Below are positions 9,023 through 31,443 of a DNA stretch of 64,000 nucleotides, one piece after another. The notes beneath the pieces were generated by a model that saw nothing but the letters and a program-made list of their open reading frames with translations, was not told where the DNA came from and did no database searches. Source of the stretch: Cellvibrio sp. KY-YJ-3 (lineage in GTDB: Bacteria; Pseudomonadota; Gammaproteobacteria; Pseudomonadales; Cellvibrionaceae); the NCBI RefSeq assembly GCF_008806955.1, contig NZ_CP031727.1, forward strand, positions 1,116,001 through 1,180,000, written 5' to 3'. A program made the position numbers and the translations under genes. The first letter of the stretch is position 1; every line of letters starts with the position of its first letter.

Positions 9023-9085
9023 TCAGTAATTGGTGGCGAATAGATATTTTTTAAATAACCCGAAACTGCACATAACAATTTAATT

Positions 9086-9118: not shown

Positions 9119-9119
9119 A

Positions 9120-9150
9120 GCTATCTGCCAAGCTTGAATTGGCAGATAGC
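9120..9150. repeat. Hairpin 2 upstream of the first TonB receptor gene
   Basis: A perfect 12-bp stem, GCTATCTGCCAA (9120-9131) with TTGGCAGATAGC (9139-9150), around a 7-base loop. Neither side has a terminator-like T-run. It ends 150 bases before the receptor start codon, and could be a leader RNA element, a processing site or a large operator. Confidence 0.65.
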
Positions 9151-9217
9151 AAAACGGTTCCAAATATAAGCAGATGTCGCGCTTGTAGGCGTAAAGTTCT
9201 GTGATGTTTGTGAAAAC

Positions 9218-9250
9218 TGCCAACACTGCAATTAGCAATCGATGTTGGCA
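9218..9250. repeat. Hairpin 3 upstream of the first TonB receptor gene
   Basis: TGCCAACA (9218-9225) pairs with TGTTGGCA (9243-9250); a smaller TGC/GCA stem can form inside. Hairpins 2 and 3 share the arms CTGCCAA and TTGGCA. It ends 50 bases before the ATG at 9301, so it would lie in the 5' untranslated region if transcription begins upstream. Confidence 0.5.
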
Positions 9251-9300
9251 ATGCTCGCTAGCTCAATGTATTTAATCACAATAAAAGATGGGGAATAGCT

Positions 9301-12009: not shown

Positions 12010-12031
12010 TTAATCATCGATGCAGTACCAC

Positions 12032-12057
12032 AGGGATGCCAGGCAACTGGCATCCCT
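12032..12057 (+). terminator. Strong hairpin after the first TonB receptor gene
   Basis: AGGGATGCCAG (12032-12042) and CTGGCATCCCT (12047-12057) form an 11-bp perfect stem capped by a GCAA tetraloop, 23 bases after the receptor stop. Only a short ATTTA tail follows, so termination may be partial. It would lower expression of the next gene or stabilise the receptor mRNA. Confidence 0.65.
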
Positions 12058-12114
12058 ATTTAGTTATCGGCGGTAGGATTTTTTATCGCGGATAATCAAA
12101 TAAAACGATTGAAT

Positions 12115-12135
12115 TCGTGATGTAAAAAATCACGA
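12115..12135. repeat. Inverted repeat before the DUF4861-GH105 gene
   Basis: TCGTGAT (12115-12121) and ATCACGA (12129-12135) form a 7-bp stem with an A-rich loop. It lies immediately before the first ATG of the next frame (12140), which would place that ATG next to a hairpin; this favours the GTG at 12164, which has its own ribosome site. Confidence 0.4.
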
Positions 12136-12163
12136 CTTAATGACGCGACAAGAGGTGAACCAC

Positions 12164-14692: not shown

Positions 14693-14698
14693 TTATCC

Positions 14699-14733
14699 GC
14701 GTTTGCCTGCATGTTATTAATGCAGGTAAACGC
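14699..14733 (+). repeat. Long hairpin between the GH105 gene and kduI
   Basis: GCGTTTGCCTGCAT (14699-14712) pairs with ATGCAGGTAAACGC (14720-14733), 14 bp with one G-U pair, around a 7-base loop. It begins 6 bases after the GH105 stop. The tail ATTGCTT is not a strong T-run, so the element may be a weak terminator or an mRNA stabiliser separating the lipoprotein gene from kduI-kduD. Confidence 0.6.
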
Positions 14734-14810
14734 ATTGCTTCTATAGAGTGGATTACCATCAACCTGTGTTGCGCCCAAGGCGCAGCAGCTGAGAGACAGA
14801 AGGTTTTATT

Positions 14811-15650
14811 ATGAAAGTATTAGAGGAACGTTTTGCAGTCCACCTGGATGACTACAAACATTACGACACTGAAAAGCTGCGTAAACATTTTTTAGTGGAG
14901 AATATTTTTACCGCCGACCAAGTGGAATTTACCTACACCCACTACGAGCGTTTGATGGTGGGCGGTGTTATGCCGGTGACTAAACCGGTGGTGCTGGAAA
15001 CCTACGATCAGCTCAAAATGGATTTCTTTTTGGCGCGCCGTGAGTTGGGTGCCATTAATATCGGTGGCAGCGGTAAAGTGTCGGTAGACGGCGAAGTCTA
15101 TGAAATTGGTACCAAAGAAGCGCTGTACATTGGTCGCGGTGCAAAAGACGTTATTTTTAGTAGCGATGACACAAATAATCCTGCCAAGTTTTATTTGAAT
15201 TCAACTCCCGCACACCAAACTTATCCTACTAAAAAAGTGAATAAGGAAAATAGCAAGGTTTTGCATATGGGCGCCGGTGATACTTGTAACGAGCGCGACA
15301 TTTATCAGCTGATGATTAATACCGTACTCGATACCTGCCAATTGCAAATGGGTATGACCGAATTAAAACCCGGCAGCATTTGGAACACTATGCCAATGCA
15401 CACACACAGCCGTCGGATGGAAGCCTATTTTTATTTCAACATTCCAGATACTCACGCGGTATGCCATTTTATGGGCCCAGCGGAAGAGACCCGTCATATT
15501 TGGGTTGGCAATGAACAAGCGGTAGTATCACCACCTTGGTCTATGCACTCTGGTGTGGGTACCGCAAATTACACCTTTATTTGGGGCATGGCCGGTGAAA
15601 ATATGGATTACACCGATATGGATTTCCATAAGCCCAGTGAATTGAAATAA
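14811..15650 (+). CDS. kduI: 5-keto 4-deoxyuronate isomerase
   Basis: KduI (279 residues) isomerises 5-keto-4-deoxyuronate to 2,5-diketo-3-deoxygluconate, the first cytoplasmic step for unsaturated galacturonate released from pectin. It is a two-cupin protein; NTMPMHTHSRRMEAYFYF contains the metal-binding His-x-His and Glu, and IGRGAKDVIFSS lies in the first half. Its length matches the family. AGAAGG precedes the ATG. It is followed 17 bases later by kduD, so the two form an operon ending at a clear terminator. Confidence is high from the diagnostic metal-binding motif and the neighbour. Confidence 0.96.
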   Translation: MKVLEERFAVHLDDYKHYDTEKLRKHFLVENIFTADQVEFTYTHYERLMVGGVMPVTKPVVLETYDQLKMDFFLARRELGAINIGGSGKVSVDGEVYEIGTKEALYIGRGAKDVIFSSDDTNNPAKFYLNSTPAHQTYPTKKVNKENSKVLHMGAGDTCNERDIYQLMINTVLDTCQLQMGMTELKPGSIWNTMPMHTHSRRMEAYFYFNIPDTHAVCHFMGPAEETRHIWVGNEQAVVSPPWSMHSGVGTANYTFIWGMAGENMDYTDMDFHKPSELK

Positions 15651-15667
15651 TTTTTTGAGAGAAAAAC

Positions 15668-16462
15668 ATGAACCATCCATTATTTGATTTAACCGGCAAA
15701 ATCGCGGTAGTCACTGGCGCAACCCACGGTTTGGGTATGGCCATGGCGAGCGGCTTGGCAAGTGCCGGCGCCACCTTGATTATTAACGGTAATTCCTCGC
15801 AGGAAAAAATCGACAACGCGGTTAATGAATATCGCGCTAAAGGTTTTAACGCATTTGGTTACAAATTTAACGTAACCAATGAGGATGAAGTGATTGCTGC
15901 TGTTGATCAAATCGAAGCTGACCACGGCCCGATTGATATTTTGATTAACAACGCCGGTATCATCAAACGTACACCGCTGTTGGAAATGACACTGGAAGAC
16001 TTTGAAGAAGTCATCAAAATCGATTTGACCGGTGTATTTACTATGACCCGCCCTGTTGCGCGCAAAATGGTTGAGCGTCGCCAAGGTAAAATTATTAACA
16101 TCTGTTCGATGATGAGTGAACTCGGCCGCAATTCGGTAGGCGCCTACGCCGCTGCCAAAGGCGGATTAAAAATGCTCACCAAAAATATGGCCACCGAATG
16201 GGCGAAATATAACGTGCAGGTAAATGGCATCGGCCCCGGTTATTTTGCTACCAGCCAAACCGAACCGATTCGCGTTGATGGTAATCCGTTTAACGACTTT
16301 ATTATCAGCCGCACACCCGCGGGCAAATGGGGTGACCCGGATGACCTGCAAGGCGCGACCATTTTCCTCGCTTCCAAAGCGAGCGATTTTGTCACCGGTC
16401 AAATCGTTTATGTAGACGGCGGTATCCTCGCTACTATTGGCAAGCCGAGTAACGAAGCTTAA
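15668..16462 (+). CDS. kduD: 2-keto-3-deoxy-D-gluconate 5-dehydrogenase
   Basis: A short-chain dehydrogenase of 264 residues that reduces 2,5-diketo-3-deoxygluconate to KDG with NADH. The cofactor loop VVTGATHGLGMAMA, the NNAG motif (INNAGIIKR) and the catalytic Tyr-x-x-x-Lys in YAAAK are all present, with a Ser about 14 residues before the Tyr. The C-terminal IVYVDGGILATIG matches KduD. GAGAG lies before the ATG. It is 17 bases downstream of kduI and completes the branch from unsaturated uronates to KDG, which KdgK (at 719-1660) then phosphorylates. Confidence 0.95.
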   Translation: MNHPLFDLTGKIAVVTGATHGLGMAMASGLASAGATLIINGNSSQEKIDNAVNEYRAKGFNAFGYKFNVTNEDEVIAAVDQIEADHGPIDILINNAGIIKRTPLLEMTLEDFEEVIKIDLTGVFTMTRPVARKMVERRQGKIINICSMMSELGRNSVGAYAAAKGGLKMLTKNMATEWAKYNVQVNGIGPGYFATSQTEPIRVDGNPFNDFIISRTPAGKWGDPDDLQGATIFLASKASDFVTGQIVYVDGGILATIGKPSNEA

Positions 16463-16473
16463 CTCTTTTAACA

Positions 16474-16507
16474 AAACCAGAATGAATTACCCCTTTCATT
16501 CTGGTTT
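16474..16507. terminator. Bidirectional hairpin after kduD
   Basis: AAACCAGAATGAA (16474-16486) and TTCATTCTGGTTT (16495-16507) form a 13-bp perfect stem with an 8-base loop. T residues at the 3' arm on both strands make it usable in either direction. It begins 12 bases after the kduD stop. Confidence 0.75.
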
Positions 16508-16515
16508 CTCCCGCA

Positions 16516-16547
16516 ACAGCCGCCCCACAAGGGTGGCTGTTTTTTTA
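16516..16547 (+). terminator. Intrinsic terminator of the kduI-kduD operon
   Basis: ACAGCCGCCC (16516-16525) pairs with GGGTGGCTGT (16531-16540), with one G-U pair and the loop CACAA, and is followed by seven further T residues (16541-16547). This is a textbook plus-strand terminator and closes region 1. The convergent minus-strand gene ends at 16572. Confidence 0.9.
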
Positions 16548-16571
16548 TGGACATTTTTTAAATAGTTGTGA

Positions 16572-17444
16572 TTAAACCAGTGCCGCTTCAAACAATGCCA
16601 ACAACCGGCTCCAGGCGCGTTCGGCCTGCTCCTGGTGGTAAACGCGGGAATCGGGCGGGCACCAGCCGTGTAACGCACCGGCGTAGACTTCCACTTCGGC
16701 TTTTACTTTTGCATCGGCGAAACTTTTGCGTAACACATTTTTTGCTTCGACATCGCGCTGGTCGTCGTTTTCGGCGATGGCAATCAGGAATTGCGCATTG
16801 GTTTTCGGGATTAATAAATGCGGGCTGTCGGGCGAGTCACTAACTAAACCACCACCGTGGAAACTGGCGACGGCGCCGATGCGCTGCGGAATTGTTGCGG
16901 CGGTGCGAAAGGCGATAGCGCCGCTCATGCAATAACCCATAGTGCCGATTTTTTTGCTGCTATCAACAGCGGCTTGTTGATCGAGAAAACCGACAAAGGC
17001 TTTTGCATCTATCACATGGGTTGCAGGGCTGAGCGTTTTGGCGAGGGCGGTTACGGCGGTGCGCGTGGCTTCATCGGCATAGGAGGCACCTTCGCCAACC
17101 ACCGGGGCTTTTTGGCTGCGATAAAATGGATTCACCACCAACACCGCATACCCGGCTTGGGCGAGGCGTTTGCCCATTAATTCAAACGCGGGGCGCAGGC
17201 CGAGAATATCCGGCCAAAGAATTACAGCAGGGTGTTTGCCGCTGGCCGGGTGCACAAAATAACAATCAGCGCTGCCGTCCGGCGTGGTTACATTAACAGT
17301 GGCTTCGGTCACGCTCATGGCGTTGGCGCTAATGGGGAAATACATCGCCAAACTGGCGCCCACCAAGCCTGCTACAAATTGGCGACGGTTGAGCTGGTTT
17401 TGCGCGTAGCGTTCATTGTCTTCTTGCGTCAGATCATCACACAT
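16572..17444 (-). CDS. Tat-exported dienelactone hydrolase-family protein
   Basis: A 290-residue alpha/beta-hydrolase. The N-terminus contains LNRRQFVAGLVGASLAMYF, a twin-arginine signal ending around SANA, so it is exported folded. The DLH-type nucleophile is a cysteine in GYCMSGAIAF, with the acid in AENDDQRD and His in LHGWCPP. Dienelactone hydrolases open lactone rings; the substrate here is unknown. AGGAGG sits at ideal distance before the ATG. It is the last gene of the six-gene minus-strand operon, 27 bases after the cytochrome b gene, and the periplasmic location is unusual for this family. Confidence 0.85.
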   Translation of the reverse strand: MCDDLTQEDNERYAQNQLNRRQFVAGLVGASLAMYFPISANAMSVTEATVNVTTPDGSADCYFVHPASGKHPAVILWPDILGLRPAFELMGKRLAQAGYAVLVVNPFYRSQKAPVVGEGASYADEATRTAVTALAKTLSPATHVIDAKAFVGFLDQQAAVDSSKKIGTMGYCMSGAIAFRTAATIPQRIGAVASFHGGGLVSDSPDSPHLLIPKTNAQFLIAIAENDDQRDVEAKNVLRKSFADAKVKAEVEVYAGALHGWCPPDSRVYHQEQAERAWSRLLALFEAALV

Positions 17445-17471
17445 GATTAGCCTCCTGTTGCAGCCGTGAAA

Positions 17472-18134
17472 TTACATGATCAACCAAACCAGTGTAGCGG
17501 CAAAAACGATTCCGATAATTAAATGCATTCTGCTCGCCCCTTGAATGGGTTCAGCGATGTGTGCTTTGCCGTGTACCATAGCGGCAGTTAAATTTTGGCG
17601 GCGCCATAACAAATAATAAATTACCGCAAGCAAATGCAATGCGATAAAACCCAGCAAGATATTAAAGGTAATTTCATGCCAGTCCGCCATTAAACGGCTG
17701 GTTTTGAAACTGAGGTAATCGGCAAAAGGGCCACCATCAAAACCGTCGACATCGATAGAAAATAAACCCAGGCCAATTTGGAGCAACAATAAAAATAGTA
17801 ATGCGAGCGCGCTATAACCACCGAGTGGATTATGCCCGGCCGATGGTGGCACATCGCGCTGTGTTAAATTTTTAAAGTACTGAAATGCTGCTGCCGGTGT
17901 TTGTAAAAAATAATTGAAGCGTGCGCTGCTGCTGCCAAAAAATCCCCAGTAACAGCGAAATAACACCACGCCGAGCAGCGCGTAGGCGCAGTAACTGTGA
18001 TACACAATTTCGTGATTTTCCGCCGTCCACCAACAGGCGGCGACCAGCAATACAATCGACCAGTGACAAATGCGCACTGGCCAATCCCACAAGGTTTTTT
18101 TGCTCAGTGTTAATTCAACTGCAGGCATGGTCAT
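17472..18134 (-). CDS. Cytochrome b561-type membrane protein
   Basis: About 220 residues with four or five membrane helices and histidines placed for heme b: WPVRICHWSIVLLVAACWW, a His in EIVYHSYCAYALLG, and two more in MADWHEITFNILLGFIALHL. The family passes electrons between the quinone pool and periplasmic cytochromes, or anchors dehydrogenases. The ATG at 18134 gives MTMPAVELTLS; a TTG six bases upstream is in frame but less likely. It starts 6 bases after the class II cytochrome c gene, which suggests the two exchange electrons. Confidence 0.87.
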   Translation of the reverse strand: MTMPAVELTLSKKTLWDWPVRICHWSIVLLVAACWWTAENHEIVYHSYCAYALLGVVLFRCYWGFFGSSSARFNYFLQTPAAAFQYFKNLTQRDVPPSAGHNPLGGYSALALLFLLLLQIGLGLFSIDVDGFDGGPFADYLSFKTSRLMADWHEITFNILLGFIALHLLAVIYYLLWRRQNLTAAMVHGKAHIAEPIQGASRMHLIIGIVFAATLVWLIM

Positions 18135-18140
18135 AGGCAA

Positions 18141-18632
18141 TTAATCCACACGGAAACTGTCGTGACAGGACGAGCAGTTATCGCGCAGGGTGCCTAATTT
18201 TTTCTGCAGCGCCGATTTATCACCACTGCTTGCCAGTGAGACCAAGGCTTTGGATTCCACCATTAATTCGTTACTAAGTGCATCAAACTTTTCTTTGTTT
18301 TCCCAAATATAAGCGCGTGCGTCGGTTTCCAAACCGGATTCCGGGCCGCTGCCCGCCGGAAACCATGTGGGTAATTTTTCGGCGAGCACCGACAATTTAG
18401 TGGCGGCACTGGTGATGGCGGCGCTATCGGGATTGCCACTTTTTAATTCATCGCGCAGGGTTTTCATTGCCGCGCCCATGTCTTTAAATCCTTCCTGCCG
18501 CGCGTCGATTATGTCTTGCTGGGCGTAAGCGGGTAGCTGTAAAAAAAGCAATGCGCTTAATGCGGCGGTTTTTACTTTCAATGGTGTTATGCAGGAAGTT
18601 GTTAATAATTTTTTGCAGATTGTAAGCATCAT
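18141..18632 (-). CDS. Class II c-type cytochrome (cytochrome c'/c-556-like)
   Basis: A secreted cytochrome of 163 residues. A signal peptide ends near LPAYAQ; the mature part is a predicted four-helix bundle, and the single heme site CSSCH lies 10 residues from the C-terminus (CSSCHDSFRVD), as in class II cytochromes. A Met near the start of the mature chain (FKDMGAAMKTL) could be the sixth ligand, as in c-556. Its ATG overlaps the TGA of the upstream ankyrin gene by 4 bases (ATGA), so translation is coupled. It probably shuttles electrons to the adjacent membrane cytochrome b. Confidence 0.9.
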   Translation of the reverse strand: MMLTICKKLLTTSCITPLKVKTAALSALLFLQLPAYAQQDIIDARQEGFKDMGAAMKTLRDELKSGNPDSAAITSAATKLSVLAEKLPTWFPAGSGPESGLETDARAYIWENKEKFDALSNELMVESKALVSLASSGDKSALQKKLGTLRDNCSSCHDSFRVD

Positions 18633-19978
18633 AGTTTTACCTGTGGCGATAACTGAAAAGCGGTGGCGAATTCGGGTTTTGCTCGGAAATCTTCAAGCTG
18701 GGCGATAGCCAGTGGCGTCTTGCCGCTGCTGTCCGCCAGATCAATCGGTGCGCCCTTTTGTGCGAGCACTAGCAACATCGCGCTGATTTGTTCCACCGTC
18801 ATCGGCATATAAAAACTGTAACCCAGCAGTAAATGCAATGCGGTTTCGCCGCGCTTGTTGGTGGCTTTTACGTCGGGCGCCAAGGACAGTGCCAAGGATA
18901 ATGCGCTGGCGTTACTGCGCACGGCGGCCAGTACCAGACTGGTGCCGTCCTGCGCGCGGAAATGCACATCGGCACCGGCGGCAACCAGGGCGCGCATGAT
19001 CGCGGTATCGCCCAGCTCCGCCGCCAACAGCAGCGGGGATTGAGGGTAGGTTACGTAGGGACGGCTGGTGAAGTTCACTTCATAGCGCCACACCACCGCC
19101 GAGGTACCGGTGAGTGCATTGGGATTGGCGCCCTTGGCGAGCAGCGCGTTTACTAACGGCAATTGGCGATGACGCACCGCCGCATGCAGTAATTGGTTGC
19201 CGTTGCGATCAATGGCATTGAGGTCCACACCGCGCTGCACAAGCTGTTCTGCCACCACAAATTGCTGTTGGTAGATGGCCATTTGCACCAGGGTGGTTCC
19301 GTCGGGCGCGACGTAATCAGCATTGGCGCCCGCTTCCAGCAAGGCCAGCGCGGTGTCTGGTGTCTTGCTGGTCAGTGCAAAAAACAGTGGGGTAAAACCT
19401 TTGGCGGTGGTGCGGTTGATCTCTGCACCCTGGTTGAGCAGCAGTTGTACGCTTGCCAATTGACCCTTGGCCGCCGCCCACATCAGCGGGGTTTGGCCGC
19501 TGTCATCGGCGGTATCCACTGGCGCGCCCAACTCCAGCAAGCGCTTTACCATGGCGACGCTGGAATTACCGGCGCAGAGTGCCAGCGGCGAAATACCGGT
19601 GCTGGTGGTGCGTTTAACATCGGCGCCAGAGTCTAACAAGGCGGCGACAATTGCCGGGTCGCCACGTTGGCAGGCAACTACCAGTGGGCTGAAACTTTGC
19701 GGCTGGGCATCACCCAGATCAGCCTTGGCGCCCTTGGCCAAGAGCAGCGCAACCAGCGCCGGGTTTTGCGTCTCCACCGCCCATGCCAGTGGCAATGAAC
19801 CATCGGCACGCGGTTTATTTAGCTTGGCACCCTGTTTAAGCGCTTGCGTTACCTTGGCCGTGTCGCCCGCGTGGATGGCGCGCATCAAGGCGTCATCGGC
19901 CGGGTCGGCCTGTGCACTCATTGACATAGTGGCCGAGCAGAGCGCGGCCGCTAAGGCCAGCAGAGGGATTAACTTCAC
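18629..19978 (-). CDS. Periplasmic ankyrin-repeat protein
   Basis: 449 residues: a signal peptide (MKLIPLLALAAALCSATMSM to AQA) followed by around ten ankyrin repeats with the usual G-xx-PL-x-x-A pattern, for example GFTPLFFALTSKTPDTALALL and GQTPLMWAAAKGQLASVQLL. Ankyrin arrays bind proteins; an exported one probably scaffolds or chaperones the cytochromes or the DUF1552/DUF1592 partners encoded beside it. The start is the GTG at 19978 with AGGAG five bases upstream; an ATG two bases away is out of frame. It follows the DUF1552 gene by 21 bases and overlaps the cytochrome gene by 4. Confidence 0.88.
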   Translation of the reverse strand: MKLIPLLALAAALCSATMSMSAQADPADDALMRAIHAGDTAKVTQALKQGAKLNKPRADGSLPLAWAVETQNPALVALLLAKGAKADLGDAQPQSFSPLVVACQRGDPAIVAALLDSGADVKRTTSTGISPLALCAGNSSVAMVKRLLELGAPVDTADDSGQTPLMWAAAKGQLASVQLLLNQGAEINRTTAKGFTPLFFALTSKTPDTALALLEAGANADYVAPDGTTLVQMAIYQQQFVVAEQLVQRGVDLNAIDRNGNQLLHAAVRHRQLPLVNALLAKGANPNALTGTSAVVWRYEVNFTSRPYVTYPQSPLLLAAELGDTAIMRALVAAGADVHFRAQDGTSLVLAAVRSNASALSLALSLAPDVKATNKRGETALHLLLGYSFYMPMTVEQISAMLLVLAQKGAPIDLADSSGKTPLAIAQLEDFRAKPEFATAFQLSPQVKL

Positions 19979-19999
19979 ATAAACTCCTGATTCGTATTG

Positions 20000-21355
20000 C
20001 TAGGCATAGAGCGCTTGCAGCGGCCCGGTGCTGTCGCCAAAACTTTCTGCGGGCACACCCATTTCGTGCATGAGCGACAACATCAGGTTGCTCATGGGTG
20101 TGTCTTTGGGTTGTTGTATGTGCCGCCCGCCGCGCAGGCCGCCGCCGGCGACGAGTGCGGGTAAATCCATATTGTCGTGCACATTGGGTTCACCCAGACT
20201 CGCGCCGCCAAAGACGATGGTGCTGTCGAGCAGGGTTTGCGCGCCGTCGGCGGTATTGCCCAAACGGTCGAGCAGATAGCCAAACTGCGCCATGTGGTAC
20301 TGGTTAATTTTGACCAGCTTGGCGATTTTGGCTTCATCGCCACCGTGATGGCTGAGGCTGTGATGGGAATCGGGTACACCGATTTCGGCGTAGGAACGGT
20401 TGCTCAGTTCGCGCCCCAGCATAAAGGTGCTCATGCGTGTCATATCGCTTTGCAGTGCCAGCACTTGCAGGTCGATCATGATGCGCACGTGCTCTTCAAA
20501 ATTCTGCGGGATGCCCGCAGGCAAGGTCAGCTGGCTGGTATCCACCTCATTGGTTTGGCGGCTGGCTTTTTGGATGCGCTGCTCCACGGTGCGGATGGAG
20601 TCCAAATACTCCTCCAACTTGCGGCGATCATTCATGCCCAAGCGCGGCGACAGGCGCGCGGCATCCTCCAAGACAAAATCGAGAATACTGGCTTTGGTGG
20701 CGAGCTGGGCTTGGCGACTTTTCTCGTCTAACGCGCGGGTATCGCCAAACAGTCGCTCAAACACATCGCCCGGTTTTACCGTGACCGGCATAGGCGCGGT
20801 GGGGCTGCGCCAGGACAAGGTATTGGTGTAAGTGCAGCTGTAACCCACATCGCAACTGCCGAGCAAGCTGGGCGGTTCAATGCCCAATTCCAGCGAGGCG
20901 AGCTGGGTGTGTTGGCCAACGTGGTTGGCGATGACCTGATCCATGGAGATGCCGCAGTAAATGTCGGCGCCCTCGGTGCGTTTGGGGTGCGCGCCGGTGA
21001 GATAGGCGCCGCAACTGCGACCGTGGCTGCCGGGGCCATCGCCCAGCGCATTGGCGTTGTAGTGCGCCAAGCCAGTGATCACCGCAAACTTATCGCGGTG
21101 GCGTGCAATGGGCTCCAGAATCGGTGTTATCGCATAGTTGTTGCCCGCCAGTGCCGGGGTAAATTCGGGCATACGCAAGCCGTTGGGCATGTAAAACACG
21201 CTCAGTTTTTTTGGGCGATTTTCCAACACCGTGTTGGCCAGCGCCGAGGGAATCAGCGATTCCATCACCGGCAAACTGATGGCGGCGCCCAAACCGCGCA
21301 GCAAACTGCGGCGCGATAACAAGGCGTTAGTGAACTGCGGCGGTCGTTTTTTCAT
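20000..21355 (-). CDS. DUF1552 protein, Tat-exported
   Basis: 451 residues. LLSRRSLLRGLGAAISLPVM is a twin-arginine signal. The body matches DUF1552, a family distantly similar to the DUF1501/sulfatase-alkaline phosphatase fold, with stretches such as LSVFYMPNGLRMPEF, GSHGRSCGAYLTGAHP and DSTIVFGGASLGEPNVHD. No activity is established for the family as far as I know. DUF1552 genes are usually paired with DUF1592 cytochrome genes, notably in Planctomycetes, and here the reading frame overlaps the upstream DUF1592 gene by 29 bases. Tat export suggests that it folds, perhaps with a metal, before crossing the membrane. Confidence 0.9.
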   Translation of the reverse strand: MKKRPPQFTNALLSRRSLLRGLGAAISLPVMESLIPSALANTVLENRPKKLSVFYMPNGLRMPEFTPALAGNNYAITPILEPIARHRDKFAVITGLAHYNANALGDGPGSHGRSCGAYLTGAHPKRTEGADIYCGISMDQVIANHVGQHTQLASLELGIEPPSLLGSCDVGYSCTYTNTLSWRSPTAPMPVTVKPGDVFERLFGDTRALDEKSRQAQLATKASILDFVLEDAARLSPRLGMNDRRKLEEYLDSIRTVEQRIQKASRQTNEVDTSQLTLPAGIPQNFEEHVRIMIDLQVLALQSDMTRMSTFMLGRELSNRSYAEIGVPDSHHSLSHHGGDEAKIAKLVKINQYHMAQFGYLLDRLGNTADGAQTLLDSTIVFGGASLGEPNVHDNMDLPALVAGGGLRGGRHIQQPKDTPMSNLMLSLMHEMGVPAESFGDSTGPLQALYA

Positions 21356-23768
21356 GGGCTGGCACCATTCGGTAGTTGAAGGGTTCGCTGGTTAAGATCC
21401 CCAGAATAATCTCGTGCATGGGGTAATTGTTGGCGCGGGCGGCGCGAATAATCTGGCGCACCTTGGGCTGGTCGTTGGCTTCCAAACCCCGGCCCAACGC
21501 GTAAATCATCAAGCGTTCGGTAAAGGCACCGGCAAATTGCTCACGGCTGTCCATCAACACATCCTGCAGGCCGTACAGGCCCTCAAAGGCGCGACCATCG
21601 GGCATGGCGGTGGTGACATCAATCGGGCGACCGGCGTCCAGTTCACGCAGGCGGCCAATCGCATCGTATTTCTCCAGCGACAGGCCAATCGGGTCCATGC
21701 GCACATGGCAGGAGTGGCACGCCGGGTCTTTGCTGTGCTGCGCCAACTGTTCGCGCGCATTAAGTGCCTTGCCGCTGGTGGATTCCGCTTTCAGTGCAGG
21801 CACATCCGGCGGCGCGGGCGGCGGTGGCGCGGCGAGTAAATTGGCCAGTACCCACTGCCCGCGGCGCACTACCGAGGTGTGGTTGGCGTAGGAGGTCACG
21901 GTGAGAATACTGGCCTGCCCCAAGAGCCCGCCGCGCATGGAATCCGGCGCCAATTGCACCCGGCGCAGCTCCGGGCCTTTTACCCCGGCGATGCCGTAAT
22001 GTGCTGCCAACCGCTCGTTGAGGAAGGTGTAATCGCTTTTGAGGAAGTCGAGAATGCTGGCGTTGTTGCGCACAATCGAACTGAAAAAGAGTTCGCTCTC
22101 GCGCTTCATGGCAGCGCGCAAGGGCACATCAAAATCGGGGAATTCCTTCACGTCGGGGCGATGGAATTCCAGGTTGCGCAAGTACAACCACTGCCCGGCA
22201 AAGTTCTGCTCCAGCGCCAGTGCGCGGTCATCCGTCAACATGCGCGCCACCTGCTGTTGTAGCGCTTTTGGCTCGCGCAACTTGCCTTTTTCGGCGAGGC
22301 TCAATAACTCCTCATCGGGCAGGCTGCTCCATAAAAACAGCGCCAGCCGCGCGGCGTATTCCATATCGCTAATGCGATGCACAGTGCCGGGCGCGGCATC
22401 CACCGGGTCGCTTTCATGGAGGAACAAAAAGCTGGGCGAGACCAGTATCGCCTGAATCGCCGCCGCTATGCCCTGTTCAAAACCGCTATTGCTCTGGGTT
22501 TGGGCTTGGCGATAGACCTTCATCAAGCGTTCAATATCATTGGCCTCCACCGGGCGACGATAAGCCTGACGCGCCAGCTTGCCGAGGATCTTCTGCGCGC
22601 AATAGTTTTCGGTAAAAGGCCAAATGCCGGGCGTGCAGCTGAAGATTTTGGCGCGGCTGGGCGTCGCACCGGGGCCAGTAACCGCGTAGGGGCCAGCGAC
22701 ATTGATCTCCAATACATCGCGCGGGAAGTTGTGTTGGGCGTAGCGCGACGACATGTAATAGGACGGCACCTGAGTGCTGCCCACACGCGCGCCATCCACT
22801 ACAAAATCCAACGTCAGGTCGGTGGGCGGCGCACTGGGCAGCGGCACTTCCTCGGTGGTATTGCGCAGGATTTGCACCCGCTCATCCAGCGCCAGGTGTT
22901 TGCGGAAAGTCAGGCCAATATGGTGCGTGCCCGCCGTCAGTGGCACACGCAGGCTGACACGATTGTCTTCCAGTCGATCCACCTCGTTGTTGGTATTGGC
23001 ATTGAGATAACCGCTAATTTCGTACTCGCCGTCGTGTGGCGCGTAATACGCAAATACCCCGCCGCCGCGTGAATCCAGCGGCAAATAGTGGCTCATGCGC
23101 TCGTCGTAAGAGGGCACGCCCTGATTGAGAATCGAACCGTCTTTGGGTAATTGATAAGTGGTGGTATAGGGTTGATCCGAGCCCAGCCCGACGGCCAAGC
23201 GGCTCACTTTGCCCGCCACCGCGAGGTAGCGATCCATCAGCACCGGCGAGACCGACAGCACATCGGCGATATTGTCAAAACCATAACCCGAGTCATCGGC
23301 GGGCAGGGCCTCACTCAGATCCTGATCGACCTGCAACAGGTCGCGCACCGCGTTGCTGTATTCATTGCGATTCAAGCGGCGCAAAGTCGCGCGCCCGGGG
23401 TTGGGGTTGGCAGCGGCATAACCATCGAGCGAGCCCTGCAGCCAATCGATAAAACCGTGCAATTCTTCATGGCCGGGTTTGGGGCGGCTCGCGGGCGGCA
23501 TTTCACCGCGCTGGGTCACGCGCAACACGCTCTCCCAATCGGCCAGATTCATACCCTTACTCACATCGTCCAGCGCCACATCGGAGAGCGTCCAGTTGCC
23601 CGCCATGCGTTCATCGTTATGACAGCGGGCGCAATGTTTTTCCAGAAAGGCTTCGGCATCGCCGCTGCTGTGCGGGCCATTGGCGAGCGCAACACTGCTG
23701 CCGCCAGCACTTAACAGCAGGGCGACGCCGAGGCGCAACAAAGAGGGTGGAATGGGCATCATAGGCAT
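21327..23768 (-). CDS. Exported cytochrome c protein of the DUF1587/DUF1595/DUF1592/DUF1588/DUF1585 family
   Basis: 813 residues with a signal peptide ending near ALANG. Order of domains: an N-terminal heme site HCARCHND; DUF1587 (RLNRNEYSNAVRDLL) at about 125-190; a beta-rich middle region (about 200-370) with a carbohydrate-binding look (YYAPHDGEYEISGYLN); DUF1595 (about 390-455); DUF1592 (about 465-595, YAARLALFLWSSLPDEEL); DUF1588 with the second heme-type motif CHSCH; and DUF1585 to the end. Two CxxCH sites imply a diheme cytochrome. It is the first gene of the six-gene operon. The family is widespread but uncharacterised to my knowledge; oxidation of a periplasmic substrate is inferred. 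Confidence 0.9.
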   Translation of the reverse strand: MPMMPIPPSLLRLGVALLLSAGGSSVALANGPHSSGDAEAFLEKHCARCHNDERMAGNWTLSDVALDDVSKGMNLADWESVLRVTQRGEMPPASRPKPGHEELHGFIDWLQGSLDGYAAANPNPGRATLRRLNRNEYSNAVRDLLQVDQDLSEALPADDSGYGFDNIADVLSVSPVLMDRYLAVAGKVSRLAVGLGSDQPYTTTYQLPKDGSILNQGVPSYDERMSHYLPLDSRGGGVFAYYAPHDGEYEISGYLNANTNNEVDRLEDNRVSLRVPLTAGTHHIGLTFRKHLALDERVQILRNTTEEVPLPSAPPTDLTLDFVVDGARVGSTQVPSYYMSSRYAQHNFPRDVLEINVAGPYAVTGPGATPSRAKIFSCTPGIWPFTENYCAQKILGKLARQAYRRPVEANDIERLMKVYRQAQTQSNSGFEQGIAAAIQAILVSPSFLFLHESDPVDAAPGTVHRISDMEYAARLALFLWSSLPDEELLSLAEKGKLREPKALQQQVARMLTDDRALALEQNFAGQWLYLRNLEFHRPDVKEFPDFDVPLRAAMKRESELFFSSIVRNNASILDFLKSDYTFLNERLAAHYGIAGVKGPELRRVQLAPDSMRGGLLGQASILTVTSYANHTSVVRRGQWVLANLLAAPPPPAPPDVPALKAESTSGKALNAREQLAQHSKDPACHSCHVRMDPIGLSLEKYDAIGRLRELDAGRPIDVTTAMPDGRAFEGLYGLQDVLMDSREQFAGAFTERLMIYALGRGLEANDQPKVRQIIRAARANNYPMHEIILGILTSEPFNYRMVPAHEKTTAAVH

Positions 23769-23956
23769 GTAACTACTGGTGTTGGATTGGGCGACAAAGG
23801 TATCGCCAGAGAAATAGCAAAACCCAGTCCAATTTCATGACCAGTTAGTCAGTATTTTTGTTAATTTATGTTTTTATTCTTATTTTTCAATTGGTTGTAG
23901 AGGTTTATTTATTAGCCTGTTGCGCAGGTGGCGATGACGAAAGCTTGGTAACGAGT

Positions 23957-24040
23957 GCACGGCGGGCGGGCAGTGGTGCAGGGGTTGAACCAAATCTGGG
24001 CACCACAGGCCGCCGTGTGATCCCTAATTTACCCGGATCA
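23957..24040. other. Nested inverted-repeat element, possible structured RNA
   Basis: An outer stem CACGGCGG (23958-23965) / CCGCCGTG (24010-24017), extended by a G-U pair, encloses an inner stem GTGGTGC (23973-23979) / GCACCAC (24000-24006), and a small GGTT/AACC hairpin can form inside. Directly after comes TGATCC (24018-24023) / GGATCA (24035-24040). This much ordered pairing in a 500-base gap is unlikely by chance. It does not match any riboswitch, tRNA or integron attC pattern that I know. It could be a leader or small RNA, or a mobile palindromic repeat. Confidence 0.5.
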
Positions 24041-24120
24041 GACGTTTAGGACAGTGTTTGAGCAAACCATCATAAAAAGTAAAGTTGATTCGCTAAAAAC
24101 CGGCAAAATGCTACCTTTAT

Positions 24121-24157
24121 AAGGCGTGCGCCTTCAGCGCAACCACCGCTGGCACGC
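24121..24157. promoter_or_regulatory. Palindrome and hairpin in the GH3 upstream region
   Basis: AAGGCG (24121-24126) and CGCCTT (24129-24134) form a perfect palindrome with a two-base centre. An alternative hairpin, GCGTGC (24124-24129) with GCACGC (24152-24157) plus the inner CAGCG/CGCTG, uses the same bases. The two pairings exclude each other. The element lies 110 bases before the GH3 start codon; it may be an operator or a leader structure. Confidence 0.4.
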
Positions 24158-24268
24158 GTAAACACTGGTTTTCGCATGGATGAATATTATTTTAATTAAC
24201 AGCGACATCCCCCTGGCGCGAACAATCCGTTATCTCTTTTCTGGTTCGTTGAATAGGTCATACCCACT

Positions 24269-26854
24269 ATGAACAATAACTTCGCTCTTCGTGCACTCTT
24301 GCCCGGTGCGCTGTTGCTCTCGCTGCTCGCGGGTTGCGACGCCAAAAAAACGGAAGCTCCCCCTGCCCCTACCGAAGCGCCTGCTACAACGGCCGCCAAG
24401 GTTGAATGGCCGGCGATTGCCAGCGCTGTCAAAAAAGACCCGGCGGTAGAGGCGCGTATCGATGATTTGCTGGCGCGCATGACCCTGGAAGAAAAAATCG
24501 GCCAGCTGGTGCAGCCTGAAATCAAATTCCTCACCCCGGAGGATGTAAAACAGTATCACGTGGGTTCAGTGCTCAACGGCGGTGGCAGCACCCCCGGCAG
24601 CAACAAATACGCGCCTCTGGAAGACTGGGTCAAACTGGCCGACAGTTATTACAACGCCTCGGTAGACACATCCAATGGTCGCATTGGCATTCCGATCATG
24701 TGGGGCACCGACGCCGTACACGGTTTGGGCAACGTGATTGGCGCGACGCTGTTCCCGCACAACATCGCGCTGGGTGCGACCAATAACCCCGAATTATTGA
24801 AAGAGATCGGCCGTGTGACCGCCGTGGAAATCGCGGTGACCGGTCTGGACTGGGACTTCTCACCCACCGTTGCCGTTGCGCGCGACGATCGCTGGGGCCG
24901 CACCTATGAAAGCTGGTCCGAAGACCCGCAAATCGTGGGCGCCTTTGCCGGCAAAATGGTGGAGGGTTTGCAAGGTGAAGGCGATACCGAAAACTTCCTC
25001 ACCAATAACCACGTAATCGCCACTGCCAAGCACTTTATTGGCGACGGCGGCACCCTGAACGGGGTGGATCGCGGGCCAACCCAAGGCGATGAAAAAGAAC
25101 TGCGCGATATTCACGGTGCCGGTTATTTCAGTGCGCTGGAGTCCGGTGTGCAGGCGGTAATGGCCTCCTTCACCAGCTGGGACGGCACCCGTATGCACGG
25201 CCATAAATACCTGCTGACTGACGTGCTCAAAGGCCAAATGGGCTTTGATGGCTTGGTGGTCGGCGATTGGAGCGGTCACAGCTTTATCCCCGGTTGTACG
25301 GCGGTGGATTGCCCTGAATCGCTGATGGCCGGTCTGGATATTTACATGGTGCCTGAGCCTAACTGGAAAGACTTGTACAACAATTTGGTGGCGCAGGCCA
25401 AATCCGGCGAGATTACCGCCGAGCGTTTGGACGATGCGGTACGCCGTATCCTGCGGGTGAAAATCCGCGCCGGCCTGTTTGAAAAAGGCGCGCCCTCTAC
25501 TCGCCCACTGGCTGGCAAAAAAGAATTGTTAGGCGCACCTGAGCACCGCGCAGTCGCCCGTCAGGCAGTACGCGAATCGCTGGTGATGCTAAAAAACAAA
25601 AACAAACTGCTGCCCTTGGCGCGCAACCAGAAAGTATTGGTCGCGGGCGATGGCGCGGACAACATCGGTAAACAAAGCGGCGGTTGGTCAGTCACCTGGC
25701 AGGGTACGGGTAACGTCAATTCCGACTTCCCCGGTGGCACCTCCATCTACGCCGGTATCAATGAAGTTGTCAGCGCCGCTGGCGGCACTGCCACCCTGAG
25801 TGTGGACGGTTCCTTTAGCGAGAAGCCCGATGTGGCGATTGTGGTATTTGGTGAAGACCCCTACGCCGAAATGCAGGGCGATGTGGGCATGCTCGCCTAC
25901 AAACCACGCAACCCCGCCGATTGGGAGCTGCTGAAAAAACTCCGCAGCGAAGGTATCCCGGTGGTATCGCTGTTTATCACCGGTCGCCCACTCTGGATAA
26001 ACCGTGAACTGAATGCCTCGGACGCGTTTGTCGCCATCTGGCAGCCAGGTACTGAAGGCGCCGGTGTGGCCGATGTGATCTTTAAAAATGCCGAAGGTGA
26101 AATCAACCACGATATGAAAGGTCGCCTCAGCTTCTCTTGGCCAAAACACCCGGATCAAACCCCGCTTAACAAAGGCGATGCCAATTACGACCCCTTGTTT
26201 GCCTATGGCTACGGCATGAGTTACGCCGATGAAAACACCCTGGGTGACAACTTGCCGGAAGACGGCCCCAAAGCCGCCGAAGCCATGGATGTGATGGAGC
26301 TATTTAACCGTCGCCCGATGGACCCATGGCAGCTGGAAATTATCGGCTTCCAGAATGATCAGATGCCAATGAACAGCAACACCGTGAAAGCCTCATCGCT
26401 GATGATTCAAGCCGTGGATCGTGAAGTACAGGAAGATGCGCGCCGTGTAGTCTGGAACGGTGCCGGTCAGGGGCAGGTGGCGCTGTCGGTGGGTAACCGT
26501 CAGGACTTTATCAATTACTACAACAGCGATTCTGCGCTGGTATTTGATATCAAAGTAGACGCCGCACCGAGCGCCACCAGCTTCCTGCGTTTGGGCTGTG
26601 GCTCCTACTGTGCGTCCGACATCGACCTGACTGAAAAACTCAAAGGTTTTGCCGGTCAGGGTTGGCAGACAGTGACAGTACCCTTTAGCTGTTACCCCAA
26701 TGCCGGCGCGAACTTTGGTATCGCCCAGCCGCCAGAAGAGTATTGGACCCAAGTCCTCGCCCCCTTCTCGCTGGTTACCGCTGGCACTTTGGATATTACC
26801 TTCACCAAAGTCAGCGTGGTAAAAGGCGCCGGTAAAGACGTCACCTGCCCCTGA
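24269..26854 (+). CDS. Glycoside hydrolase family 3 beta-glucosidase (exo-beta-glucanase-like), lipoprotein
   Basis: 861 residues. The signal peptide ends in the lipobox LLAGC, followed by a Pro/Ala/Thr-rich linker, so it should be lipid-anchored. The GH3 N-terminal barrel (about 60-415) includes MTLEEKIGQLVQPE, the KHFIGDGGT loop and the nucleophile Asp333 in GLVVGDWSGH. The GH3 C-terminal domain spans about 440-660, and a beta-sandwich module like that of ExoP-type exo-glucosidases fills about 690-855. It is expected to release glucose from cello- or mixed-linkage beta-glucan oligosaccharides; in Cellvibrio such enzymes are the Cel3 group. It converges on a TonB-dependent receptor gene across a shared terminator. 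Confidence 0.93.
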   Translation: MNNNFALRALLPGALLLSLLAGCDAKKTEAPPAPTEAPATTAAKVEWPAIASAVKKDPAVEARIDDLLARMTLEEKIGQLVQPEIKFLTPEDVKQYHVGSVLNGGGSTPGSNKYAPLEDWVKLADSYYNASVDTSNGRIGIPIMWGTDAVHGLGNVIGATLFPHNIALGATNNPELLKEIGRVTAVEIAVTGLDWDFSPTVAVARDDRWGRTYESWSEDPQIVGAFAGKMVEGLQGEGDTENFLTNNHVIATAKHFIGDGGTLNGVDRGPTQGDEKELRDIHGAGYFSALESGVQAVMASFTSWDGTRMHGHKYLLTDVLKGQMGFDGLVVGDWSGHSFIPGCTAVDCPESLMAGLDIYMVPEPNWKDLYNNLVAQAKSGEITAERLDDAVRRILRVKIRAGLFEKGAPSTRPLAGKKELLGAPEHRAVARQAVRESLVMLKNKNKLLPLARNQKVLVAGDGADNIGKQSGGWSVTWQGTGNVNSDFPGGTSIYAGINEVVSAAGGTATLSVDGSFSEKPDVAIVVFGEDPYAEMQGDVGMLAYKPRNPADWELLKKLRSEGIPVVSLFITGRPLWINRELNASDAFVAIWQPGTEGAGVADVIFKNAEGEINHDMKGRLSFSWPKHPDQTPLNKGDANYDPLFAYGYGMSYADENTLGDNLPEDGPKAAEAMDVMELFNRRPMDPWQLEIIGFQNDQMPMNSNTVKASSLMIQAVDREVQEDARRVVWNGAGQGQVALSVGNRQDFINYYNSDSALVFDIKVDAAPSATSFLRLGCGSYCASDIDLTEKLKGFAGQGWQTVTVPFSCYPNAGANFGIAQPPEEYWTQVLAPFSLVTAGTLDITFTKVSVVKGAGKDVTCP

Positions 26855-26877
26855 TAACTGCTGATTCCTAGCCAATA

Positions 26878-26911
26878 AAAAACCCCCGCATGGGAACATG
26901 CGGGGGTTTTT
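26878..26911. terminator. Bidirectional terminator between the GH3 and TonB receptor genes
   Basis: AAAAACCCCCGCATG (26878-26892) and CATGCGGGGGTTTTT (26897-26911) form a 15-bp perfect stem with a GGAA loop; T-runs flank it on both strands. It serves the GH3 gene from the left and the convergent receptor gene from the right. Confidence 0.95.
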
Positions 26912-26937
26912 GTTTTGCGGGGTTTTAACTGAGAGGC

Positions 26938-29673: not shown

Positions 29674-29683
29674 AGAGTTCCCC

Positions 29684-29712
29684 GTGTTGTTTTATTGTGA
29701 GCATGACAACAC
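29684..29712 (-). repeat. Leader hairpin next to the ribosome site of the receptor gene at 26938-29673
   Basis: On the minus strand GTGTTGT (from 29712) pairs with ACAACAC (to 29684) across a 15-base loop. GGGGA and the ATG follow directly, so the hairpin would sit beside the ribosome binding site and could affect translation initiation. Confidence 0.4.
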
Positions 29713-29757
29713 CGACATCCACCGAGGCATTATTCTGGCATCTGATATATGTGGTGT

Positions 29758-29813
29758 ACTTGTATACATGTGTTATGGTTGTAAATACTATTACTTGTAT
29801 GCAAGTGGGTCAA
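29758..29813 (-). promoter_or_regulatory. Promoter and two operator-like palindromes of the receptor gene at 26938-29673
   Basis: On the minus strand TTGACC (29813-29808) and TAGTAT (29790-29785) are 17 bases apart, a good sigma-70-type promoter. The 17-base spacer contains the palindrome ACTTGCATACAAGT (29793-29806). A second copy, ACATGTATACAAGT (29758-29771), begins 13 bases past the -10 box, near the expected start of transcription. The spacing gives sites about 35 bases apart on the helix. This is a classic repressor layout. The TTGTATACAA-like core resembles GntR-family sites, but the regulator is not in the window. Confidence 0.7.
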
Positions 29814-29835
29814 TAGACAAGCGCGGGCGACACAT

Positions 29836-29870
29836 AAAAAAATCCCCGCGTGAAAACCACGCGGGGATTT
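29836..29870 (-). terminator. Terminator after the halogenase-like gene
   Basis: AAATCCCCGCGTG (29840-29852) pairs with CACGCGGGGATTT (29858-29870), 13 bp with a 5-base loop. On the minus strand a run of seven T residues follows the stem (A-run at 29836-29842). It lies 28 bases beyond the halogenase stop and insulates the next receptor promoter. Confidence 0.93.
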
Positions 29871-29898
29871 AGCTAAATTGCGGATTAAACACCAGAGT

Positions 29899-31413: not shown

Positions 31414-31443
31414 CTGCCAAACCTCTTGCGCCATTGCGAATAA

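What the first reader, a model, noticed from the sequence alone, without database searches (positions are those of the whole stretch)
16572..23768. Six-gene, fully exported redox operon with two DUF families of unknown activity
Seen: a DUF1592-type diheme cytochrome, Tat-exported DUF1552 protein, periplasmic ankyrin scaffold, class II cytochrome c, membrane cytochrome b561 and Tat-exported dienelactone-hydrolase-like enzyme, all on one strand with overlaps of 29 and 4 bases and gaps of 6-27 bases. Known: DUF1592 and DUF1552 genes pair up often, mainly in Planctomycetes, without an assigned reaction. Inference: electrons from a periplasmic oxidation pass DUF1592 hemes, then cytochrome c and cytochrome b to the quinone pool, while the lactonase opens an oxidised sugar lactone. 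It sits between two polysaccharide islands.
Basis: partly seen in the sequence, partly recalled or inferred. Interest (0 to 1): 0.75.

Follow-up and report, generated by a model that had tools for sequence, protein, structure and literature searches.

The report
Exported heme-protein operon, unknown reaction
This is a real set of six neighbouring genes for exported or membrane electron-carrying proteins; its three-gene core recurs in distant bacteria, and it points to a possible overlooked partner of a known but unexplained cellulose-degradation protein.

Summary
The six-gene minus-strand operon is real at the stated coordinates, with the stated overlaps and gaps. Its core is a trio: a diheme DUF1592-type protein (CAZy "X132" type), DUF1552 (HXXSHH) and a secreted ankyrin protein. 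In 80 public loci, DUF1592 lies beside DUF1552 in 78 and an ankyrin gene beside the pair in 64. Among nine close orthologous loci, cytochrome c' occurs in 9, b561 in 8, the hydrolase in 3. Flanking polysaccharide genes are not conserved. New here: a moderate-confidence DUF1552 model resembles the alkaline-phosphatase/sulfatase fold, with an invariant His at the catalytic formylglycine position and the usual metal ligands missing. DUF1592 has no PDB fold match at E<=1e-3. The host genome has two paralogous pairs, one with an orthologue of Cellvibrio Cbp2D, a cellulose-growth protein of unknown mechanism. In the genus, 56 of 59 DUF1552 matches pair with DUF1592; term searches in three Cbp2D/X132 papers found no mention of DUF1552. 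Reaction and direction of electron flow remain unproven; the lactonase story is unsupported.

The parts
21327..23768 (-). DUF1587/1595/1592/1588/1585 (PSD3-PSD5-PSD4-PSCyt3-PSD2; X132-type) diheme c-type cytochrome, Sec-type N-terminus, 813 aa; CxxCH at residues 46-50 and 684-688, MPP at 90-92
   Evidence: conserved columns; model pLDDT 88.6, pTM 0.89; no PDB fold match at E<=1e-3
20000..21355 (-). DUF1552 / HXXSHH protein with twin-arginine motif, 451 aa; model resembles the alkaline-phosphatase/sulfatase fold, with invariant H111 at the nucleophile position
   Evidence: model pLDDT 69.8
18629..19978 (-). secreted ankyrin-repeat protein, 449 aa, GTG start; core third member of the unit
   Evidence: an ankyrin gene beside the pair in 64 of 80 public loci; one ankyrin-DUF1592 single ORF L103:16712-21136
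18141..18632 (-). class II cytochrome c (cytochrome c'), CSSCH near C-terminus, 163 aa
   Evidence: nearest solved chain cytochrome c' 1cpq E 1.1e-14; CxxCH in 10 of 10 homologues
17472..18140 (-). membrane cytochrome b561 (Ni_hydr_CYTB family), 222 aa; first ATG at 18134
   Evidence: five His (H26, H48, H103, H155, H169) conserved in 9 of 9 homologues; no solved relative by sequence
16572..17444 (-). Tat-type dienelactone-hydrolase-family protein, 290 aa; optional member
   Evidence: present in 3 of 9 close orthologous loci
16515..16541 (.). terminator-like hairpin (11 pairs, T tail on +) between the convergent KduD-like gene and the operon
   Evidence: consensus scan only (19 such sites in the region, 11.8 expected, sd 3.8)
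23769..24268 (.). 500-base divergent intergenic region between the operon and a GH3 gene; presumed promoter region
   Evidence: coordinates; one promoter-like match inside (23890-23863, minus), but promoter-like matches over the region are not above chance (3 found, 4.9 expected)

Best explanation
The operon encodes a self-contained periplasmic oxidoreductase module. Its core is a complex of the diheme DUF1592 protein, the Tat-exported DUF1552 protein and the ankyrin protein. DUF1552 is a re-purposed sulfatase-fold protein in which the nucleophile has been replaced by an invariant His (H111); with D139, H337 and H393 (joined in this subtype by H331/H332 and H336) it probably holds a metal and forms the active site, and the DUF1592 hemes carry its electrons. 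In this lineage cytochrome c' and membrane b561 have been added to link the module to the quinone pool. I favour oxidation of a small carbohydrate-derived substrate, electrons leaving through the hemes to cytochrome c'/b561. Shown by sequence: gene set, pairing, conservation, absence of the sulfatase catalytic residues. Supported by a model only: fold class of DUF1552. Inferred: metal site, physical complex, electron path and direction, substrate.
For: Near-obligate pairing: 78 of 80 public loci, same strand, 4-base overlap in 38 of 78; 56 of 59 DUF1552 matches in 21 genomes of the genus paired with DUF1592, and the same 3 genomes lack both. Ankyrin gene within 500 bases of the pair in 64 of 80 loci, against 10 ankyrin matches in the rest of the flanks; the host genome has only two frames with Ank_2 matches. 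Both hemes conserved (H678, C684, C687, H688 at 1.00 and C46, C49, H50 at 0.96-0.98 of 82 rows). Fold: 7 of 7 Foldseek hits at E<=1e-3 belong to the alkaline-phosphatase superfamily. H111, D139, T306 and H393 in 103 of 103 DUF1552 rows, both host paralogues included; H111+D139+H337+H393 together in 101 of 103. Carbohydrate link: host paralogues carry CBM2+YceI+cytochrome and 4xCBM26+glucose/sorbosone-dehydrogenase domains; a PQQ-type dehydrogenase gene in 21 of 80 loci. Cytochrome c' and b561 recur in orthologues.
Against: I found no reported activity for a DUF1592 or DUF1552 protein in the papers searched. The DUF1552 model is of moderate confidence (pLDDT 69.8; segments 101-108 and 332-334, close to the proposed site, below 50), its PDB matches have low TM-scores (0.31-0.40 for the seven hits at E<=1e-3) and large rmsd, and no atomic distances could be measured, so neither fold nor metal site is proven. 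Profile similarity to sulfatases is weak to moderate (2.5-67%). H331, H332 and H336 are not all kept in the host paralogues. Cytochromes c' are often high-spin gas-binding proteins (recalled), not plain carriers. Cytochrome c'/b561 are absent near most trio loci, so the link to quinone is lineage-specific. The PQQ count has no genome-wide control. Ankyrin profile matches show repeats, not orthology.
Confidence: 0.45

Rival explanations
1. The same module works in the other direction: quinol electrons pass b561, cytochrome c' and the DUF1592 hemes to DUF1552, which activates O2 or peroxide, or to another oxidative enzyme in the manner proposed for Cbp2D and LPMOs.
For: The isolated X183 cytochrome of Cbp2D can reduce an LPMO and start cellulose oxidation (PMC8981238, passages); the host paralogue carries YceI/X158 domains, a domain type reported to bind ubiquinone-8 (same passages).
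Against: The window operon proteins carry no CBM or YceI domain, and no LPMO domain appeared in the 26 window proteins scanned with Pfam (the rest of the genome was not searched for LPMOs). T. turnerae X132 relatives were reported as apparently inconsistent with an LPMO-donor role (PMC10916295 passages).
Confidence: 0.25
2. DUF1552 is a true hydrolase or transferase of the alkaline-phosphatase superfamily with a histidine nucleophile; the cytochromes serve a neighbouring redox step.
For: Fold match; His at the nucleophile column in both alignments that cover it.
Against: The Asp/Asn metal ligands of the superfamily are absent: the region of DDxG reads mostly YxPNG, and [ST]D[NHQ]G occurs in 1 of 103 rows against 14 of 16 sulfatases; it would not explain the near-obligate pairing with a diheme protein.
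Confidence: 0.1
3. DUF1552 is a non-catalytic, Tat-exported assembly or anchoring factor for the cytochrome, and DUF1592 itself is the enzyme at its C-terminal heme.
For: R672, H678, C684, C687, H688, D692 and P693 of DUF1592 are at 1.00 of 82 rows; enzymes turned into pseudo-enzymes are common (recalled).
Against: Invariant H111, D139, T306 and H393 in 103 of 103 DUF1552 rows suggest a functional site rather than a scaffold.
Confidence: 0.12
4. The six genes are neighbours without a common function.
For: DLH and the flanking polysaccharide genes are indeed not conserved neighbours.
Against: The core and the two cytochromes recur in the same order in unrelated flanks.
Confidence: 0.03

Closest known systems
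Planctomycete-specific cytochromes PSCyt3/PSD with an adjacent unknown gene family, described in freshwater Verrucomicrobia (PMC5615132: passages, and section 13)
   Same: Same PSCyt/PSD domain types; [quoted passage not shown] The library listing counts 'DUF1552' three times in this paper's record, though not in the main text.
Cbp2D / Cbp2E of Cellvibrio japonicus and X132 proteins TERTU_3803 and TERTU_2913 of Teredinibacter turnerae (PMC12542752: abstract, passages, section 22; PMC8981238 and PMC10916295: passages)
   Same: X132 is very probably the same module as DUF1587-to-1588: the host's Cbp2D-like protein matches the solved Cbp2D X183 chain 7b21 at E 5.4e-45 and carries DUF1587/1595/1592/1588 behind it; PMC8981238 marks a DUF1587 in Cbp2D. 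Deletion of cbp2D or cbp2E impairs growth on insoluble cellulose; mechanism open.
   Different: The window protein has no CBM2 or YceI/X158 domain and sits with ankyrin, cytochrome c' and b561; it is a paralogue, not Cbp2D. Term searches of these three papers found no mention of a DUF1552 neighbour.
Sulfatases / alkaline-phosphatase superfamily (PF00884 and relatives)
   Same: Fold by model comparison; register of the C-x-[PSA]-[SAT]-R...TG signature with H111...L-[TS]-[GC].
   Different: Nucleophile and metal ligands not kept; TM-scores 0.31-0.40; profile similarity weak to moderate (67% with 16 sulfatases, 2.5% with 6).
DUF1501 (PF07394)
   Same: Profile similarity to DUF1552 of 29% or 90% depending on settings; also found beside other cytochrome-like families (recalled).
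   Different: 0 matches in the host genome.

Membership tests
PSCyt3/PSD (X132) cytochrome | DUF1587, 1595, 1592, 1588, 1585 in order, over curated cut-offs | tested here: met
   all five over cut-off
PSCyt3/PSD (X132) cytochrome | C-terminal CxxCH in DUF1588 | tested here: met
   C684, C687, H688 at 1.00 of 82 rows (82 kept of 107 matches by length 720-900 aa and after leaving out the duplicate locus L057)
Cbp2D | CBM2 plus YceI/X158 plus X183 ahead of X132 | tested here: not met
   one search shows none in the window protein; met by the paralogue at L007:6361-9735
Sulfatase / alkaline-phosphatase superfamily | fold | tested here: inconclusive
   7 of 7 PDB hits at E<=1e-3 are of this superfamily (Foldseek probability 0.99-1.00), but TM-scores are 0.31-0.40 and the model's pLDDT is 69.8
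Sulfatase / alkaline-phosphatase superfamily | Cys (formylglycine)/Ser/Thr nucleophile | tested here: not met
   His at that column in 103 of 103 rows (the column rests on profile alignments of low to moderate probability)
Sulfatase / alkaline-phosphatase superfamily | Asp/Asn metal ligands (DD near first strand; S-D-N-G near last strand) | tested here: not met
   [ST]D[NHQ]G in 1 of 103 DUF1552 rows against 14 of 16 sulfatases; first strand followed mostly by YxPNG
DUF1552 (HXXSHH) | Pfam PF07586 over cut-off and H-x-x-S-H-H motif | tested here: met
   (354.8 bits)
cytochrome c' (class II) | PF01322 with CxxCH near the C-terminus | tested here: met
cytochrome c' (class II) | high-spin five-coordinate heme | not testable with these tools
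   needs spectra
cytochrome b561 (PF01292) | conserved His able to ligate two b hemes (four needed) | tested here: met
   H26, H48, H103, H155, H169 in 9 of 9; which four are ligands was not tested
Dienelactone hydrolase | Cys-His-Asp triad | tested here: inconclusive
   C172 and H259 align with a putative DLH (3f67); Asp seen by eye only; no activity test
LPMO electron donor | reduces an LPMO | not testable with these tools
   bench assay

The most novel reading that the evidence does not exclude
DUF1592 and DUF1552 together form a new class of two-protein heme/metal enzyme: a sulfatase-fold subunit turned into a metal-dependent redox (or oxidative sugar-cleaving) catalyst by a His at the nucleophile position, wired to a heme protein of unprecedented fold. 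The unexplained cellulose-cutting function proposed for Cbp2D in Cellvibrio would then depend on the so far overlooked DUF1552 neighbour, and the window operon would be its soluble, membrane-wired, ankyrin-associated form.
Probability: 0.25. Interest if true: 0.85.

Novelty: new variant of a known kind. Interest (0 to 1): 0.6.

Why it matters
I found no assigned reaction for the DUF1592/DUF1552 families in the papers searched. The evidence here turns them into a testable unit: a recurrent three-gene core, a concrete candidate active site (H111/D139/H337/H393) on a familiar fold, and a genetic handle, because one paralogue sits beside an orthologue of Cbp2D, whose deletion already has a cellulose-growth phenotype in the laboratory species Cellvibrio japonicus. 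The lack of a clear function for X132 proteins studied in pieces would be explained if the DUF1552 partner is needed.

Tried and rejected
Polysaccharide-island context: eleven flanking proteins of the window (UxaA, GH28, GH88, KduI, KduD, GH3, three TonB receptors, halogenase, SapC) were searched beside the operon in 15 related loci that I printed; apart from a TonB-receptor and a partial halogenase match at one end of L138 and a short-chain-dehydrogenase match in L144, none recurred, so context was dropped as evidence.

Sequence search for solved relatives of DUF1552 (profile) and DUF1592 (single sequence): none up to E 1. Foldseek of DUF1592: 0 of 242 matches at E<=1e-3, best 0.19.

Sulfatase comparison: the first set of 17 proteins was mixed with phosphoethanolamine-transferase-like ones and gave 10.9% probability with an alignment that does not cover H111; 6 true sulfatases gave 2.5%, 16 gave 67%, both with H111 on the Cys. 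Three decoy profiles gave 0.07, 0.08 and 3.4%. The link to sulfatases rests mainly on the fold search.

A weak cytochrome-c' match (54 bits, opposite strand, 5.4 kb away) in L082 was not counted as a partner.

NCBIfam hits of the ankyrin protein to Dot/Icm effectors are generic ankyrin matches far below the curated cut-offs and were rejected as identity.

Ankyrin fusion: one single ORF (L103) in a metagenome-assembled genome; a lone case, so weak.

Promoter-like sites in 16440-24300: 3 against 4.9 expected; terminator-like sites 19 against 11.8, several weak minus-strand ones (5-6 pairs) inside the operon, so a single transcript is not shown. Rfam: 0 matches in the window. tRNAs: 0.

Full report
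OBSERVATION. Order of transcription: DUF1592-type protein 23768-21327, DUF1552 21355-20000, ankyrin 19978-18629, cytochrome c' 18632-18141, b561 18140-17472, DLH 17444-16572. The 29-base and 4-base overlaps are exact. The gap before b561 is 6 bases only if its first ATG (18134) is used. A hairpin with a T tail lies at 16515-16541 between the convergent KduD-like gene and the operon; promoter-like matches over the region are not above chance, and some weak terminator-like stems lie inside, so one transcript is plausible but not shown.

A CONSERVED CORE OF THREE. In these 80 loci, DUF1592 lies within 500 bases and on the same strand in 78; the exceptions are L106, cut at the contig edge, and L123, where it is 5.9 kb away. 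The overlap is exactly 4 bases in 38 of 78. An ankyrin gene lies within 500 bases of the pair in 64 of 80: 39 downstream on the same strand, 21 upstream and divergent, 3 upstream same strand, 1 downstream opposite; 10 further ankyrin matches lie elsewhere in the flanks. Of the 16 without one, 4 (L083, L093, L123, L129) have it farther out, and several are cut short at contig ends. The four loci from Planctomycete records (L108, L114, L115, L121) lack it, three of them with a short flank on at least one side; Verrucomicrobial records are mixed (L117 and L122 with; L116, L120 and L124 without). The ankyrin profile was built from matches in these same loci and ankyrin repeats are promiscuous, so orthology of the ankyrin proteins is not proven. 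The host genome has only two frames with Ank_2 matches. One ORF (L103:16712-21136) carries ankyrin repeats and DUF1592 in one frame. A hydrophobic N-terminal stretch is present in 68 of 75 ankyrin homologues (7 of 75 in an internal control stretch), and a twin-arginine motif in 89 of 100 DUF1552, 4 of 84 DUF1592 and 0 of 75 ankyrin homologues.

LINEAGE-SPECIFIC ADDITIONS. In the nine loci with >=69% DUF1552 identity (window, G020, G015, G021, G024, G003, G136, G135, G428; identities), cytochrome c' is present in 9 of 9, b561 in 8 of 9 (absent at the G024 locus) and DLH in 3 of 9 (window, G020, G015). One distant locus (L152, 37%) has both cytochromes but no ankyrin match. Six loci at 55-64% identity (L058-L063) have the trio without either cytochrome within 6 kb. 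Among 144 genomes of the family, a DUF1552 relative at E<=0.001 was found in 62, but the close orthologue (>=69%) in only 8; in the order, 11 of 390 genomes have one at E<=1e-60. So the b/c cytochromes are real partners within one patchy branch, and DLH is an addition seen in one genus. L057 and L140 are the same contig (equal length and place). Flanking polysaccharide genes do not travel with the unit.

PARALOGUES IN THE HOST. The genome has three DUF1552 and three DUF1592 genes, in three pairs. Beside one pair (L007) is a CBM2-YceI protein of 353 aa; the DUF1592 protein of that pair is a CBM2-YceI-cytochrome-DUF1592 protein of 1124 aa that matches the solved Cbp2D X183 chain 7b21 at E 5.4e-45 and X158 chains. 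These are the architecture and close to the sizes reported for Cbp2E (350 aa) and Cbp2D (1,122 aa) of Cellvibrio japonicus (PMC12542752 passages). The other (L008) is a 2275-aa protein with four CBM26, a glucose/sorbosone-dehydrogenase domain, cytochrome domains and DUF1592. In 21 genomes of the genus, 18 have both families and the same 3 have neither; 56 of 59 DUF1552 matches have DUF1592 within 3 kb on the same strand, and 57 of 60 DUF1592 matches (two of them pieces of one gene) have DUF1552. Two of the three unpaired DUF1552 begin at bases 59 and 508 of their contigs, where an upstream partner would be cut off; the third is a short match. Of the 57 paired DUF1592, 30 lie in frames of 900-1300 aa (the Cbp2D size class), 16 below 900 and 11 above 2000.

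WHAT DUF1552 IS. A model from the 15-row alignment has mean pLDDT 69.8 and pTM 0.75. All 7 PDB matches at E<=1e-3 are alkaline-phosphatase superfamily members: steroid sulfatase (1p49, 8eg3), lipoteichoic-acid synthases (4uop, 4uor, 4uoo), a carrageenan sulfatase (9bau); but their TM-scores are only 0.31-0.40 with rmsd of 9.6-18.7. In 103 aligned DUF1552 sequences (400-520 aa, score over 150, plus the two host paralogues; one contig counted twice), H111, D139, T306 and H393 are invariant; H331 (97), H332 (101), H336 (102) and H337 (101) nearly so, although the host paralogues lack H332, and the L008 one also H331 and H336. Profile alignment puts H111 on the catalytic formylglycine Cys of sulfatases (both alignments that cover it): the 16 sulfatases read C-x-[PSA]-[SAT]-R...[LMI]-[TS]-G, and 91 of 103 DUF1552 rows have H111 with L-[TS]-[GC] at 119-121, the same spacing. 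The probability of the profile match is only moderate (67% with 16 sulfatases, 2.5% with 6; three decoys 0.07-3.4%). The usual metal ligands are missing: mostly YxPNG at the first strand, and [ST]D[NHQ]G in 1 of 103 rows against 14 of 16 sulfatases. By its residues it is not a sulfatase, whatever its fold.

WHAT DUF1592 IS. The 68-row model is good (pLDDT 88.6, pTM 0.89): an N-terminal heme region, strands at about 201-365, and a large helical part around the second heme. None of 242 Foldseek matches reaches E 1e-3 (best 0.19). PMC10916295 (passages) likewise says that X132 has no structurally or functionally characterised homologue to the authors' knowledge. C46xxCH50, M90-P-P, H678, C684xxCH688, D692 and P693 are conserved at 0.96-1.00 of 82 rows (82 of 107 matches kept by length 720-900 aa, which favours complete N-termini).

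MECHANISM. Best reading: an exported oxidoreductase whose active site is on DUF1552 and whose hemes are on DUF1592, held together with the ankyrin protein; here wired to the membrane through cytochrome c' and b561. A carbohydrate-derived substrate is favoured because paralogues are fused to cellulose- and starch-binding modules and a sugar-dehydrogenase domain, and because a PQQ-type dehydrogenase gene occurs in 21 of 80 loci (no genome-wide control). A CBM2-bearing DUF1592 protein close to a Cellvibrio one is also listed in a lignocellulose multi-omics table (PMC6004670, one passage). Direction is open: the isolated X183 of Cbp2D can feed electrons to an LPMO (PMC8981238, passages), whereas the T. 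turnerae relatives appeared inconsistent with that role (PMC10916295, passages).

LITERATURE. Library searches found 2 papers with DUF1592, 2 with DUF1552, 0 with both, 0 with HXXSHH, 1 with PSCyt3, 4 with any of DUF1587/1588/1595/1585/PSCyt1, 10 with DUF1501, 2 with DUF1501 and DUF1800 and 9 with Cbp2D. PMC5615132 (section 13 read) already noted that PSCyt3 genes usually lie next to a family of unknown genes, so the pair is not new. Term searches in PMC12542752 (DUF, HXXSHH, operon, adjacent, downstream, neighbor, hypothetical protein), PMC10916295 and PMC8981238 gave no mention of a DUF1552 neighbour; supplements and most subscription papers, including the original 2014 Cbp2D report, were not seen, so absence from print is not established.

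VERDICT. A real and conserved unit of unknown reaction; a new variant (trio plus b/c cytochromes) of a known but unexplained pairing, with a candidate active site and a direct genetic test through Cbp2D.

Noticed in passing
L008:8977-15804 and 7628-8959 (host genome C1 about 4437600-4445800): 2275-aa protein with four CBM26 starch-binding modules, glucose/sorbosone dehydrogenase, Big_2, cytochrome and DUF1592 domains, followed by its own DUF1552 gene.
   Followed up: partly
L007:5276-10996 (host genome C1 about 21275-26995): Cbp2E-like and Cbp2D-like genes followed by a DUF1552 gene and then a GH11 xylanase.
   Followed up: partly
21 of the 80 public loci, e.g. L097:8509-10248: PQQ-type quinoprotein dehydrogenase genes recur 0.1-6.7 kb from the DUF1592/DUF1552 pair; NHL and virginiamycin-lyase-like propellers and glyoxalase-like proteins recur in fewer loci.
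   Followed up: partly
L067, L089, L110, L134: Two DUF1592/DUF1552 units lie close together, some in opposite orientation with ankyrin genes between or beside them.
   Followed up: no
L111 (CAMBTO010000039.1): A trio locus whose metagenome record is titled Klebsiella pneumoniae; the label looks doubtful for this gene set.
   Followed up: no
window 5316-16462: Pectin-type cluster: altronate dehydratase, GH28, TonB receptor, DUF4861-GH88 fusion, KduI-like and KduD-like proteins.
   Followed up: no
window 26938-35375: Two TonB receptors flanking a tryptophan-halogenase-like protein and a SapC-family protein.
   Followed up: no
window 43014-43976: 320-aa ORF with no Pfam match at E 0.001.
   Followed up: no
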